Positions 44,348 to 47,570 of a DNA stretch of 64,000 nucleotides are shown in pieces (position 1 is the first letter of the stretch; the number at the start of each line of letters is the position of its first letter). Both the position numbers and the translations under genes were made by a program. Source of the stretch: Pseudomonas fontis (GTDB taxonomy: Bacteria; Pseudomonadota; Gammaproteobacteria; Pseudomonadales; Pseudomonadaceae); NCBI RefSeq assembly GCF_028656955.1, contig NZ_JAMDGY010000010.1, positions 18,170 through 82,169 on the forward strand, read 5' to 3'. A model generated the notes under the pieces. That model did not search any database, had not been told where the DNA came from, and saw only the letters and a program-made list of their open reading frames with translations.

Positions 44348-44737
44348 ATGCAGAACCAGCAACAACCGGCCATTGCGCTACGTTTCAAACGCAAGGTCAA
44401 TGCCCCGTTGCAGGGCAAGGTCGACGTGCCGGAGAGCGAAGAACGCGCTGGCAACGAACATATCCGCGAGCTGCTCAGGGCATTCGGGCTGCGTACCAGC
44501 CTGATCCGCCTCAAGGTCATCGATGCCTTGCACCTGGCTGATCGCAATGGCCGCAGTATCGGCGTTCGCGGCATTCACACCCAGCTGGAACAGCTGGATA
44601 TCCCGCTGTCGTTCCTCAGCGTGCGCGAAGTGCTCAAGCGTTTGTGCGCAGAAGGCGTGATCAGCATGGGTATCGACAAATGCTACAGCCTCAACCCCGA
44701 GGCCAGGGCACTGCTCGAACACGGCTATTCGCGCTGA
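44348..44737 (+). CDS. Fur-fold winged-helix regulator lacking metal sites
   Basis: The 129-aa protein has the Fur-like DNA-binding pattern: ELLRAFGLRTSLIRLKVIDAL (about residues 40-60), GRSIGVRGIHTQLEQLDIPLSFLSVREVLKRL (as separate helices, about 66-97) and a short wing EGVISMGIDKCYSLN. It lacks the His/Cys-rich dimerisation half of Fur and Zur, so it probably does not sense metal in the usual way. It is divergent from pvdQ, with 215 bp between. This pairing suggests a role in siderophore or iron control, but that is inference. Confidence 0.75.
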   Translation: MQNQQQPAIALRFKRKVNAPLQGKVDVPESEERAGNEHIRELLRAFGLRTSLIRLKVIDALHLADRNGRSIGVRGIHTQLEQLDIPLSFLSVREVLKRLCAEGVISMGIDKCYSLNPEARALLEHGYSR

Positions 44738-44782: not shown

Positions 44783-44971
44783 TCAGAACTTGACTTTGCG
44801 GCGCATGATGCCGTTGACGACAACCACCACCACGGCAATGCCGATGGCGACGTATTGGAACACCTGTTCGCTGATCACACCCTGTTTTTGCAGGTAGGAA
44901 AGCCCCAACATGGCGCCTAGCACCACCAGGGAAATCAGGATCGAGTATTTCAGGCGTTGACCTTGAGTCAT
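44783..44971 (-). CDS. Small two-helix membrane protein
   Basis: The 62-aa product has two hydrophobic helices (YSILISLVVLGAMLGLSYL and FQYVAIGIAVVVVVVNGIM) joined by a polar turn, with a basic C-terminal end MRRKVKF. ATG 44971 has AAGGA 8 bases upstream. No known family; the coding frame is well supported by the ribosome site and by typical codon use. Confidence 0.7.
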   Translation of the reverse strand: MTQGQRLKYSILISLVVLGAMLGLSYLQKQGVISEQVFQYVAIGIAVVVVVVNGIMRRKVKF

Positions 44972-45132
44972 GGAAAAATCCTTGCAGCACAGATGATGAA
45001 GGCCCGGAATCGGCCGGCGGCCATCATACCGCGTGATGCACTGCGGGAGCATGCTTTCCCGGTATTTTCCGTCAGCACTTCTTGAAAGCATGGGGCTCCC
45101 GGGCAAATGCCCAGACCGACGAGTCCACTCCC

Positions 45133-45588
45133 ATGCGTTCGACACTTCTACTCGGCAGCCTCGCGCTGACCACCGCCCTCACCAGCCACGCCTTCGACAC
45201 CACCCAGCACAGTGAAGCGATCCTGCAGCAACTGGGCAACGTGCTGGCCGACACCGCCAGTGCCAGCCAGTGGCAGCAGCTGTGGCAACGTACCCGCGCC
45301 GCCGGGCATTTCGCCAACGGTGACGGCGCGCACTTCACCCTCTCCCAACAGCAGATCCCCAGCCTGGTGAAAAGCACCCTGGATACCGCCGACTCGGTGG
45401 CCCCCGAGCCTGCCACGCTGGCCGTGTACCGCAAGGACTTCCACCCGCAGGTGGTGGGCCAGCAGGGCCAGGCCGCGCTGAGCGCGATTTGCCTGCGCGT
45501 CGACTGGCGCAACCTGCCGCCCAGCCTGCCGGCCAATCCGCAGGCGCACATGAGCCAGGTAAGCCTGTTGCGCACCTGGCCGTGCTGA
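45133..45588 (+). CDS. Putative exported protein of unknown function
   Basis: The 151-aa product has a signal peptide (MRSTLLLGSLALTTALTSHA) and a mature part with a helical stretch (EAILQQLGNVLADTASASQWQ in pieces) and two Cys (Cys121 region and the C-terminal Cys). No family recognised. ATG 45133 gives the signal peptide; an upstream in-frame start at 45082 would bury it. Confidence 0.62.
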   Translation: MRSTLLLGSLALTTALTSHAFDTTQHSEAILQQLGNVLADTASASQWQQLWQRTRAAGHFANGDGAHFTLSQQQIPSLVKSTLDTADSVAPEPATLAVYRKDFHPQVVGQQGQAALSAICLRVDWRNLPPSLPANPQAHMSQVSLLRTWPC

Positions 45589-45831: not shown

Positions 45832-46212
45832 ATGGAACTCTGCGACCTGAACCGAATCGACATCGACCAACTCCCGCAATCGCTGCAGATGCTGATTGAC
45901 TGCATCGGCCTTGAACATGCCTACCGGCTGACCAGCATCTATGGCGGGCGCCCGAAATACATTCCCAAGCATCGCGAACGCACCAGCCTGGCCGAGATCC
46001 TGCCGGCTGAGGCACTCGATGCCCTGATCAAACGCTACGCCGGGATGGCCCTGGAAATCCCCAAGGCCGACCACTTCAACCGCCAGCTGCGCAACCAGCA
46101 GATCCAGCAGGAAAGCTCGCTTGGCCAGTCGCGTAGCGTACTGGCGGACAAGTACGGGCTGAGCCTGCGCCAGATCGGCAACATCCGTCGTCAGGAAGCG
46201 CTCTCTCGCTGA
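45832..46212 (+). CDS. Mor-family transcriptional activator
   Basis: The 126-aa protein matches the Mor/C family of phage Mu middle- and late-gene activators: DLNRIDIDQLPQSLQ and IGLEHAYRLTSIYGG (dimer region), then a C-terminal HTH, SVLADKYGLSLRQIGNIRRQ (residues about 100-120). AAGGAA lies 7 bases upstream of ATG 45832. No Mu genes are nearby. It precedes two DUF2589 genes in the same direction by 55 bp, so it may regulate or belong to that unit. Confidence 0.8.
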   Translation: MELCDLNRIDIDQLPQSLQMLIDCIGLEHAYRLTSIYGGRPKYIPKHRERTSLAEILPAEALDALIKRYAGMALEIPKADHFNRQLRNQQIQQESSLGQSRSVLADKYGLSLRQIGNIRRQEALSR

Positions 46213-46267
46213 GCGAACCTGCCACACATTCCGCGCATGACGCGCACCCCTAGAGAAGGAAACTCAC

Positions 46268-46918
46268 ATGCCTGATATCGACAGCGGCCTGATCGGCTCC
46301 GTCATCAACGCCCTGCCCCTGGACCGGATGATCTCCGGTCCGTTGCAGGCCATGATCCAAGCCCAGGTCGGGGCCAGCAAGGCCTACGCCGACTTCCTCA
46401 TGGGTGTCTGCATCCAGGATGGCAAGGCGGTCGCCATCCAATTCGACTACGACGAGACCATCACCGATGAGCAGGGGGTATACAAGGGTACCGTCTCGAA
46501 GAAGATGCAGATCCCGCTGCTGGCAGCGATCGCCCACCCGAACATCACCATCGAGGAAGGCAACATCGAGTTTGAGCTGACCATCAGCCAGCAGGCTGAA
46601 GACAGCAGTTCGAACGAGGCCAGTGGCTCGTTTGGCGCCTCGCTGGGCTGGGGGCCGCTGAAGGTCAACGTCAAGGGCCAGGTGGCCAGCAAATCGGCGC
46701 AAACCCGCAAGAGCGATACCCGCGCACGCTACGCCTTCAATACCAAGGTGCGCCGCCAGGACCCGCCAGAAGCCTTGATGCGGGTGATCGACTTCCTCAC
46801 CGACGCGGCCACCAAGCCGGTGGTGATGCCGAACGCCAAGCCGGAAAACCTTGAAGCCTTGCCAACTGACAATGCCCTGCCGATGCCGGATGCCGGCGCG
46901 CAAGACAGCAAGGCCTGA
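46268..46918 (+). CDS. DUF2589 domain protein, copy 1
   Basis: The 216-aa product fits the uncharacterised DUF2589 family. It starts with a hydrophobic-amphipathic stretch (GLIGSVINALPLDRMISGPLQ), then AMIQAQVGASKAYADFLMGV (helix). The middle is beta-rich (ISVPLLAAIAHPN-like IPLLAAIAHPNITIEEG and EFELTISQQ), with a Ser/Asn-rich linker and FGASLGWGPLKVNVKGQVAS; the tail is Pro-rich. There is no signal peptide. Function unknown. Its own terminator-like hairpin follows. Confidence 0.72.
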   Translation: MPDIDSGLIGSVINALPLDRMISGPLQAMIQAQVGASKAYADFLMGVCIQDGKAVAIQFDYDETITDEQGVYKGTVSKKMQIPLLAAIAHPNITIEEGNIEFELTISQQAEDSSSNEASGSFGASLGWGPLKVNVKGQVASKSAQTRKSDTRARYAFNTKVRRQDPPEALMRVIDFLTDAATKPVVMPNAKPENLEALPTDNALPMPDAGAQDSKA

Positions 46919-46947
46919 TCCCCCCGCCCCTTGACCCCCAGCGTGTT

Positions 46948-46974
46948 GCCCCGCCCTTACGGGTGGGGCTTTTT
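46948..46974 (+). terminator. Hairpin between the two DUF2589 genes
   Basis: GCCCCGCCC-TTAC-GGGTGGGGC then TTTTT. One G/T mismatch in the stem. It may end or reduce transcription between the two genes. Confidence 0.75.
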
Positions 46975-47000
46975 GCCGCCAGCATGAGGAGTACCGTGCA

Positions 47001-47570
47001 TTGGAACAGCGCCCGCCCGCTAAAGAGCCGATTGCCTCGAGCGATCTGTGCGATATCACCCGTGGCTTGCAGGAAGCCGCTGCCGCGACCACGAGCCTGA
47101 TTGCGCAGCAGTACATCAAGCTCTTCGACCAGTTCTTCGACTATGACCCCGATGCCTTGGGCACACCGATGAAGGCCAAGATGGTCGAGGTGGCGATGGA
47201 TGATCGGCATACCATGCGGGTGCCGTTGATTGCCCTGGTGTCGCCGCGCGGCCTGGCCCTGGAGCGGATGCAGGTGGATTTGTCGGTGAAGATCCAGAAC
47301 TCCGAGCAGGCGTCCTTTCGCCATGCGTTGGACAATGGTGAGTTGAGCCACGAACGGTTCTTCGTCAAGGTGGGCGCGAACAAGCGCCAGGGGGACACGC
47401 GTGATCCGGATGAAGTGCAGATCCGCTTGCAGTTCCAGGCGTGTGAACCGCCAGAGGCGCTGAACCGGTTGATTGAGGAGTACACCAACCTGATCAGCCC
47501 GATCCGCCAGAGCGAGGCAACCGATGGGCCGCCGAGCAATGAATTCATCGAGGCGGCAACGGTGCGCTGA
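47001..47570 (+). CDS. DUF2589-like protein, copy 2
   Basis: The 189-aa product shares the layout of copy 1: LQEAAAATTSLIAQQYIKLF (helix, about residues 23-42), a beta-rich middle with MRVPLIALVSPRGLALERMQ and VDLSVKIQ, and the shared phrase PPEAL(N/M)R(L/V)I near the C-terminus (copy 1: DPPEALMRVID; here EPPEALNRLIE). No ATG fits; TTG 47001 with GAGGAG 9 bases upstream is the best start. The two copies are only distantly alike, so this is not a recent duplication. Confidence 0.65.
   Translation: MEQRPPAKEPIASSDLCDITRGLQEAAAATTSLIAQQYIKLFDQFFDYDPDALGTPMKAKMVEVAMDDRHTMRVPLIALVSPRGLALERMQVDLSVKIQNSEQASFRHALDNGELSHERFFVKVGANKRQGDTRDPDEVQIRLQFQACEPPEALNRLIEEYTNLISPIRQSEATDGPPSNEFIEAATVR

What the first reader, a model, noticed from the sequence alone, without database searches (positions are those of the whole stretch)
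45832..47570. Mor activator plus two tandem DUF2589 proteins: candidate undescribed system
A Mu-type Mor activator stands 55 bp before two DUF2589-family genes, with no phage structural genes around. The two DUF2589 proteins share layout (N-terminal helix, beta-rich middle, PPEAL phrase) but differ strongly, so they may form a hetero-complex. A terminator-like hairpin between them could set a fixed ratio. The block lies between an exported protein and tamB. DUF2589 has no known function as far as I recall.
Basis: partly seen in the sequence, partly recalled or inferred. Interest (0 to 1): 0.7.

Follow-up and report, generated by a model that had tools for sequence, protein, structure and literature searches.

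The report
Paired DUF2589 genes beside lysis enzymes
This Pseudomonas genome carries a phage-type activator gene followed by two unstudied sister genes that, in many relatives and in some phages, sit next to enzymes that cut bacterial cell walls, so the trio is likely the control-and-membrane half of an unrecognised cell-lysis or toxin-release device whose cutting enzyme is not found next to it in this strain.

Summary
In detail: a Mor-family gene (45832-46212) is followed by two DUF2589 genes, A (46268-46918) and B (47001-47570), both over the Pfam cut-off. DUF2589 nearly always comes in twos (47 of 50 distinct positive genomes give two separate matches). Mor is found before A in 67 of 79 fetched loci. 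The new fact is the neighbourhood: in all 31 stretches taken from unnamed positive genomes, 21 carry a phage-type peptidoglycan hydrolase within 3 kb of the pair, and none beyond 4.5 kb (five enzyme families in the Pfam-checked set). In 20 mor-containing loci a pesticin-type lysozyme gene faces away from mor, 164-180 bp off. The pair also occurs in phages, in some beside a holin or endolysin. A, unlike B, has a conserved amphipathic beta-hairpin; neither has a transmembrane helix. Best reading: a Mor-switched lysis or toxin-release cassette in which A/B act at the membrane for a cytoplasmic endolysin; the window keeps a form without the enzyme. The ratio-setting hairpin is not conserved (2 of 68). 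Function is untested, and many phage copies do not lie in lysis operons.

The parts
45133..45588 (+). EXP: exported-looking 151-aa protein (signal-peptide-like start, two invariant Cys in 14 aligned sequences), likely a periplasmic inhibitor or immunity protein for the pesticin-type lysozyme of relatives (inferred)
   Evidence: Homologue found in 65 of 68 mor-containing loci (window included); end to end with the lysozyme gene in L044, L051, L056; least conserved member (median identity to window 45% and 40% in the two locus groups against 66-78% for Mor, A, B); alignment. No Pfam or PDB match.
45832..46212 (+). Mor-family transcription activator (126 aa)
   Evidence: PF08765 42.2 bits; phrog_836 2.6e-26
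46233..46245 (+). GCGC dyad just before the ribosome-binding site of A; role unknown
   Evidence: Similar dyad within 75 bp upstream of A in 35 of 67 relatives, against 7% of background windows (1004 of 14397) (position read)
46268..46918 (+). DUF2589 gene A (216 aa)
   Evidence: PF11655 78.2 bits, cut-off 23; no transmembrane-like segment (max KD19 1.03)
46622..46687 (+). part of A that encodes the conserved amphipathic beta-hairpin (residues 119-140, tip GWGPF or similar in most A proteins)
   Evidence: Alternation reached by 5 of 100,000 permutations; 40 of 41 gap-free nonredundant A proteins individually p<0.05; low AlphaFold confidence here
46948..46974 (+). terminator-like hairpin between A and B; not conserved
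47001..47570 (+). DUF2589 gene B (189 aa, TTG start), without the hairpin arm
   Evidence: PF11655 56.9 bits

Best explanation
The window holds a Mor-family activator gene and two tandem DUF2589 genes, a pair that in several bacterial lineages sits beside phage-type cell-wall-cutting enzymes and also occurs in phages, and that likely serves as the membrane-side partner of such an enzyme in a regulated cell-lysis or toxin-release cassette. Proposed steps, all inferred from anatomy: (1) Mor is made on a signal and would switch on its own promoter region, the divergent lysozyme gene where present, and the A-B pair. (2) A and B, which show no transmembrane helix or signal peptide, would assemble together in the cytoplasm; the conserved amphipathic hairpin of A would insert into or lie on the inner membrane. 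(3) That would let the cytoplasmic, signal-less endolysin reach the wall, so that a fraction of cells lyses and frees enzymes, toxins, DNA or vesicles. (4) The exported neighbour EXP would inhibit stray lysozyme in the periplasm. In the window's lineage the lysozyme gene beside mor is absent while EXP, Mor, A and B remain, so here the device would either work with another lysozyme of the cell or be a remnant with a changed use. Shown here: gene content, pairing, neighbourhood, divergent lysozyme in relatives, shared sites, hairpin pattern. Not shown: any activity.
For: Pairing: 47 of 50 distinct positive genomes give two separate DUF2589 matches. Hydrolases: all 31 stretches taken from unnamed positive genomes, 21 with a hydrolase within 3 kb and no hydrolase hit beyond 4.5 kb, by seven phmmer queries. 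In 26 hand-picked loci, 16 ORFs in 16 loci (GH24 lysozyme 7, GH19 4, pesticin 3, muramidase 1, amidase_3 1) among 149 ORFs within 3 kb, 0 of 129 ORFs beyond 4.5 kb, Fisher p 3e-5. Pesticin: in 50 Pseudomonas genomes stand-alone pesticin lysozymes occur in 4 of 23 with DUF2589, each about 0.7 kb from it, and in 0 of 27 without (Fisher p 0.04); three of those 27 have weak partial hits inside long ORFs. Divergent lysozyme: 20 of 68 mor loci, 164-180 bp from mor. Shared site GTAA-N2..4-TTCC: in the mor-A gap of 22 of 22 and before mor in 15 of 22 relatives of that setting, background 0.0004 per 150 bp; the pattern was read off the same alignments. A, B and seven tested hydrolases lack transmembrane or signal segments by hydropathy. 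Other lineages have LuxR-type regulators near the pair (GerE in 9 of 149 near ORFs) and a barnase-like exported RNase. Phages: holin directly before B-A (L202), endolysin before A (L201).
Against: The window itself has no lysozyme near the pair, and no pesticin match was found in its genome; other lysozyme families were not searched there. 10 of 31 unselected stretches show no recognised hydrolase nearby (three of them Pseudomonas stretches, two shorter than 5 kb), and 48 of 68 mor loci, the window included, have no pesticin gene. In the viral contigs B-A often follow recombination genes (RecT-like by eye), or lie between terminase genes, with the presumed lysis genes on the other strand, which does not suit a simple late lysis gene. 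In L202 a holin is already there, so A/B need not be the pore. The family is also in Archaeoglobus, which to my knowledge has no murein. Structure models are weak and match nothing clear. Beta alternation fits any amphipathic hairpin; other strands of A and B score as high or higher. The 5' half of the shared site before A overlaps the mor stop codon; the site is absent in the window.
Confidence: 0.42

Rival explanations
1. A and B are regulators or protectors of lysis (antiholin, releasin-like or timing proteins, or superinfection exclusion) rather than the pore; they hold the endolysin or holin in check until Mor or another signal changes the balance.
For: They occur beside a holin match in L202 (a similar ORF in L203 by eye) and with recombination or packaging genes in other viral contigs; the window keeps A, B and EXP but not the lysozyme, as expected if they protect; Mu itself uses a membrane-tethered cytoplasmic releasin (PMC9239132, abstract).
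Against: Apart from weak matches, no holin family was recognised in the bacterial cassettes that were scanned. In 20 loci Mor stands between A-B and the lysozyme, with shared sites in most, which looks like co-induction rather than opposition.
Confidence: 0.22
2. The pair builds or loads a delivery particle for antibacterial effectors (lysozymes, RNase, peptidases), with EXP and similar genes as immunity proteins.
For: Effector-like neighbours: pesticin lysozyme, M35-type peptidase, sub-cut-off M91, barnase-like RNase, Tle1-like phospholipase; EXP is end to end with the lysozyme and is the least conserved member.
Against: No spike, sheath, tube, VgrG or baseplate family is among the 25 commonest of 146 families in 149 near ORFs (the rest were not shown); A and B match no PDB fold clearly and no PHROG structural family.
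Confidence: 0.13
3. A general cellular or phage housekeeping pair (stress, nucleic-acid or membrane repair) that became linked to lysis genes by shared mobility, with no part in lysis.
For: Presence in Archaeoglobus and in replication or packaging regions of phages; sporadic distribution, for example 9 of 398 genomes of the phylum; basic conserved stretch behind the hairpin.
Against: Five hydrolase families beside it and none found in more distant ORFs, and the strict divergent spacing of the lysozyme from mor, are hard to get from mobility alone.
Confidence: 0.15

Closest known systems
Type 10 secretion (holin/endolysin/spanin lysis cassettes that release toxins; PMC10847048, abstract read)
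   Same: Regulated chromosomal endolysin genes next to toxin or effector genes; a cytoplasmic endolysin needs help to reach the wall
   Different: Built around a holin and spanins (my knowledge and the listing); here the constant part is a pair of proteins without transmembrane helices, and the window lacks the endolysin
Phage Mu lysis with the releasin gp25 and no holin (PMC9239132, abstract read)
   Same: Mu is the source of the name Mor; its lysis is helped by a non-holin accessory protein
   Different: gp25 is DUF2730 with an N-terminal transmembrane domain and frees a SAR endolysin; A and B are DUF2589, show no transmembrane segment, and the seven hydrolases tested beside the pair are not SAR-like by hydropathy
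Explosive cell lysis by the pyocin-cluster endolysin of P. aeruginosa (PMC4834629, abstract read)
   Same: Pseudomonas, a phage-derived endolysin, possible vesicle or DNA release
   Different: That enzyme lies in the R/F-pyocin cluster; no tail genes were noticed beside the bacterial DUF2589 pairs
Pesticin (PDB 4aqn and others)
   Same: Same lysozyme domain, E 1.4e-18
   Different: The Pseudomonas gene has the killing domain only, matching residues 196-350 of the pesticin chain; the receptor-binding and translocation part (recalled) is missing

Membership tests
DUF2589 (PF11655) | Profile score over the Pfam cut-off | tested here: met
   A 78.2 and B 56.9 bits, cut-off 23
Mor activator (PF08765) | Profile score over the Pfam cut-off | tested here: met
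   42.2 bits, cut-off 24.9
Mor activator (PF08765) | Binds a dyad and activates the downstream promoter | not testable with these tools
   Only shared candidate sites in relatives, none in the window
Phage-type lysis cassette / T10SS | Endolysin gene in the cassette | tested here: not met
   Window: none seen between EXP and the tamB-like gene, no pesticin hit in the genome. Relatives: hydrolase within 3 kb in 21 of 31 unselected stretches
Phage-type lysis cassette / T10SS | Transmembrane holin | tested here: not met
   A and B max KD19 1.03 and 0.92, Mor 0.86, EXP 1.17 (its signal-like start), against 2.02 for the L202 holin
Phage-type lysis cassette / T10SS | Spanin genes | tested here: inconclusive
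   None noticed in the window block, no dedicated search; weak Rz-like hits near the pair in some viral contigs only
Phage-type lysis cassette / T10SS | Causes lysis when expressed | not tested
   Needs the bench
Beta-pore-forming proteins (works-like only) | Amphipathic hairpin that inserts into membrane | tested here: inconclusive
   Conserved alternation; no fold match, low-confidence model
Candidate anti-phage defence (PADLOC) | Match to a PADLOC model | tested here: inconclusive
   No match for Mor, A or B at E up to 1; the library holds only what was described by 2023

The most novel reading that the evidence does not exclude
DUF2589 A/B is a new class of holin substitute: a two-protein, water-soluble pore-former that uses a beta-hairpin instead of transmembrane helices to release interchangeable endolysins, shared by bacteria and phages and switched by Mor or LuxR-type regulators; it would be the core of a widespread prophage-independent lysis and toxin-release system.
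Probability: 0.2. Interest if true: 0.88.

Novelty: new variant of a known kind. Interest (0 to 1): 0.62.

Why it matters
DUF2589 is a family with no assigned role: one paper in the held library mentions it, and only as an expression result. Tying it to endolysins of five families and to phages gives it a testable role. If right, it adds a lysis module without a classical holin to bacteria such as Pseudomonas, Pectobacterium and Vibrio, with possible roles in vesicle and DNA release, altruistic toxin release and biofilm, and gives a new accessory lysis part to look for in environmental phages.

Tried and rejected
Rejected: the A-B hairpin as a conserved ratio setter (2 of 68). Rejected: that the pair is confined to Pseudomonas or absent from phages; the first viral scans, with window A and L137 A, found nothing, later ones did, and one with L199 found none. 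Isolate phage records gave only one unverified faecal contig. AraC-type regulators are no more common near the pair than far from it (4 of 149 and 4 of 129), so I do not count them.

Led nowhere: AlphaFold models of A (pLDDT 62) and B (72), without clear PDB matches; PADLOC and NCBIfam; PDB search with EXP and with Mor; paper searches for Mor in Pseudomonas, for chromosomal lysis cassettes and for pesticin-like genes beside holins (listings only). The match of phage family 3 to an 'endolysin' PHROG falls on that profile's C-terminal part, outside the stretch that the GH24 lysozyme matched, so I do not count it as a lysozyme. L141 has an M15-endolysin-like ORF by eye, but Pfam gave no support, so it is not counted. 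L210 shows B-A, a small membrane protein and a lysozyme-like ORF by eye only.

Limits: the 26 loci were picked by hand after I had seen the neighbourhoods; left out were, among others, loci with an enzyme (L185, L191, L193, L194, L115) and without one seen then (L135, L143, L187, L199). I therefore repeated the count on all 31 stretches taken (21 with, 10 without), which also found enzymes that my ORF choice had missed (L144, L187, L196, L199). Many loci are related (GH24 cases of enterobacteria; viral contigs largely of one environmental group), so counts are not independent events. G166 gave one DUF2589 match, G398 two pieces of one gene, G080 a broken pair.

Full report
What is there. The window codes for a Mor-family activator (45832-46212), then two DUF2589 proteins, A (46268-46918) and B (47001-47570, TTG start); all three pass their Pfam cut-offs and each has a plausible ribosome-binding site by eye. 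Before them lies an exported-looking 151-aa protein that I call EXP (45133-45588), with no Pfam match. Mor also matches a PHROG of late transcriptional activators at 2.6e-26.

Is it more than chance? The order EXP, mor, A, B is kept. In 79 loci fetched from named genomes by similarity to A, Mor is found in 67, B in 78 and EXP in 64; with the window included the call counts Mor in 68 and EXP in 65 of those. The Mor match ends 59-101 bp before the A match in all but two of the 68. The pair lies in two settings: beside the tamB-like gene, as in the window, or in other places of the chromosome. Of the 50 distinct positive genomes 47 give two separate matches; the others are G080 (broken pair), G166 (one match) and G398 (two pieces of one gene). 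In most Pectobacterium loci the two genes stand some 4-5 kb apart.

The neighbourhood. Reading ORFs around the pair showed phage-type peptidoglycan hydrolases again and again, and Pfam confirmed them: Pesticin PF16754 (L044, L198), Phage_lysozyme PF00959 (L102, L137, L189), Muramidase PF11860 (L113, L115), Glyco_hydro_19 PF00182 (L136, L140, L145, L186), Amidase_3 PF01520 (L138). Near: LuxR-type GerE 9, Phage_lysozyme 7, GH19 4, Mor 4, Pesticin 3. Far: none of these hydrolases among the 25 families shown, and no far ORF matched any of seven hydrolase queries, while 16 near ORFs in 16 loci did (Fisher p 3e-5). To remove the bias of my choice I repeated the search on all 31 stretches taken from unnamed positive genomes: 21 have a hydrolase within 3 kb of a DUF2589 gene, 10 have none, and no hydrolase hit lies beyond 4.5 kb. 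Of the ten, three are Pseudomonas stretches and two are shorter than 5 kb. The loci are not independent: 11 of the 21 are GH24 cases of one family.

Pseudomonas detail. In 20 of 68 mor-containing loci, a lysozyme gene of the pesticin type faces away from mor, 164-180 bp from it, and in the three read in detail it runs end to end with EXP. It has only the killing domain of pesticin (match to residues 196-350 of PDB 4aqn) and no signal or transmembrane segment. In 50 Pseudomonas genomes stand-alone versions occur in 4 of 23 genomes with DUF2589, each about 0.7 kb from it, and in 0 of 27 without (Fisher p 0.04); three of these 27 have weak partial hits within ORFs of 885-1032 aa. The window's genome has none. 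EXP is the least conserved member (median identity to the window 45% and 40% in the two groups, against 66-78% for Mor, A and B), as one might expect of an inhibitor that follows its enzyme; this is inference. In 22 loci of the second setting a site GTAA-N2..4-TTCC, read off the alignments, stands in the mor-A gap in 22, its 5' half overlapping the mor stop codon, and before mor in 15, with a background of 0.0004 per 150 bp; the window has none.

Other lineages. Mor is also beside the pair in a Vibrio plasmid (25.4 bits, cut-off 24.9) and, below the cut-off, in L140, where the order is Mor-like, A, B, GH19 (18.4 bits). Several enterobacterial loci carry a LuxR-type regulator, the GH24 lysozyme, small membrane proteins and a signal-peptide-bearing barnase-like RNase (best PDB E 7.6e-6 for the L189 copy). 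A conserved protein of about 90 aa accompanies many A genes and has no Pfam or PHROG match where tested.

Phages. A scan with A of L202 met 145 stretches in viral contigs, of which 141 code for a relative. Of 81 loci examined my ORF caller found A in 79; in 72 of these B stands directly (62) or next-but-one (10) upstream. L202 is a phage structural region (portal, head protein) with a holin match (phrog_2359, 8.8e-7) directly before B-A; L201 has an endolysin (phrog_315, 3.8e-36) before A. Against a simple lysis role, many of these contigs have B-A behind recombination genes (RecT-like by eye) or, in three near-identical ones, between terminase genes, with weak Rz-like spanin matches on the opposite strand. 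Isolate phage records gave one unverified contig only.

The proteins. Neither A nor B has a transmembrane-like segment (max KD19 1.03 and 0.92, against 2.02 for the L202 holin). In 44 nonredundant A proteins, residues 119-140 alternate hydrophobic and polar positions around a GWGPF-like tip; 5 of 100,000 permutations reach this, and 40 of 41 gap-free sequences do so on their own at p<0.05. B shows no comparable arm between its strands (top 0.49), though core strands of both proteins alternate as strongly or more. The pattern would suit a membrane-inserting hairpin, but also a packing or assembly arm. AlphaFold gives a helix, strands and a helix with the arm at low confidence (A pLDDT 62, B 72), and no PDB fold matches clearly.

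How it most likely works. Mor would be the switch; the endolysin is the likely cutter where present; A and B are likely the constant partners that act at the membrane for a cytoplasmic enzyme; EXP is likely the safety catch. The swap of five enzyme families beside one constant pair is what one expects of lysis cassettes, where the cutter is exchangeable and the gate-keeper is not. All function is inferred. The window keeps the switch, the pair and EXP but no enzyme nearby, so in this strain the device may use another lysozyme, or be a remnant.

Known or new. DUF2589 appears in one paper of the held library, as lactate-induced genes of Archaeoglobus (passage read). The nearest known kinds, T10SS, Mu lysis and explosive cell lysis (abstracts read), share the logic but rest on other parts. 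Membership of a classical lysis cassette is not met in the window (no endolysin, no holin); working like one remains open.

Noticed in passing
L106:6118-8630 and L100:2843-8630: In most Pectobacterium loci a large synthetase-like gene sits between B-lysozyme-membrane protein and A, while one species keeps them compact, as if the gene had been inserted into the cassette.
   Followed up: partly
L189:9556-10038 and L102:9783-10271: Exported barnase-like RNase in the DUF2589 operon of enterobacteria (PDB E 7.6e-6 for L189); no barstar-like gene was noticed by eye.
   Followed up: partly
L137:8996-9262, L184:9019-9285, L136:10316-10582, L113:9906-10190: Conserved protein of about 90 aa (VKRIVVG...RCLSxxPKG...GEHQVVLQ) beside A, without Pfam or PHROG match for the L137 copy.
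   Followed up: partly
window 46233-46245: GCGC dyad before the ribosome-binding site of A, seen in 35 of 67 relatives; may be a 5' leader structure.
   Followed up: no
L111:7198-8070 and L098:1841-2842: Membrane proteins beside the pair in two bacteria, bestrophin-like by eye; PF14023 Bestrophin-like was found in two near ORFs.
   Followed up: no
window 44348-44737 (+) and 44783-45145 (-): Two small ORFs upstream of EXP without Pfam match over the cut-off; the first is kept in relatives of the same setting.
   Followed up: no
L115:2431-2661 and L198:6359-6598: Small zinc-ribbon-like protein between a DUF2589 gene and the hydrolase in two distant loci (weak Pfam matches for L198).
   Followed up: no
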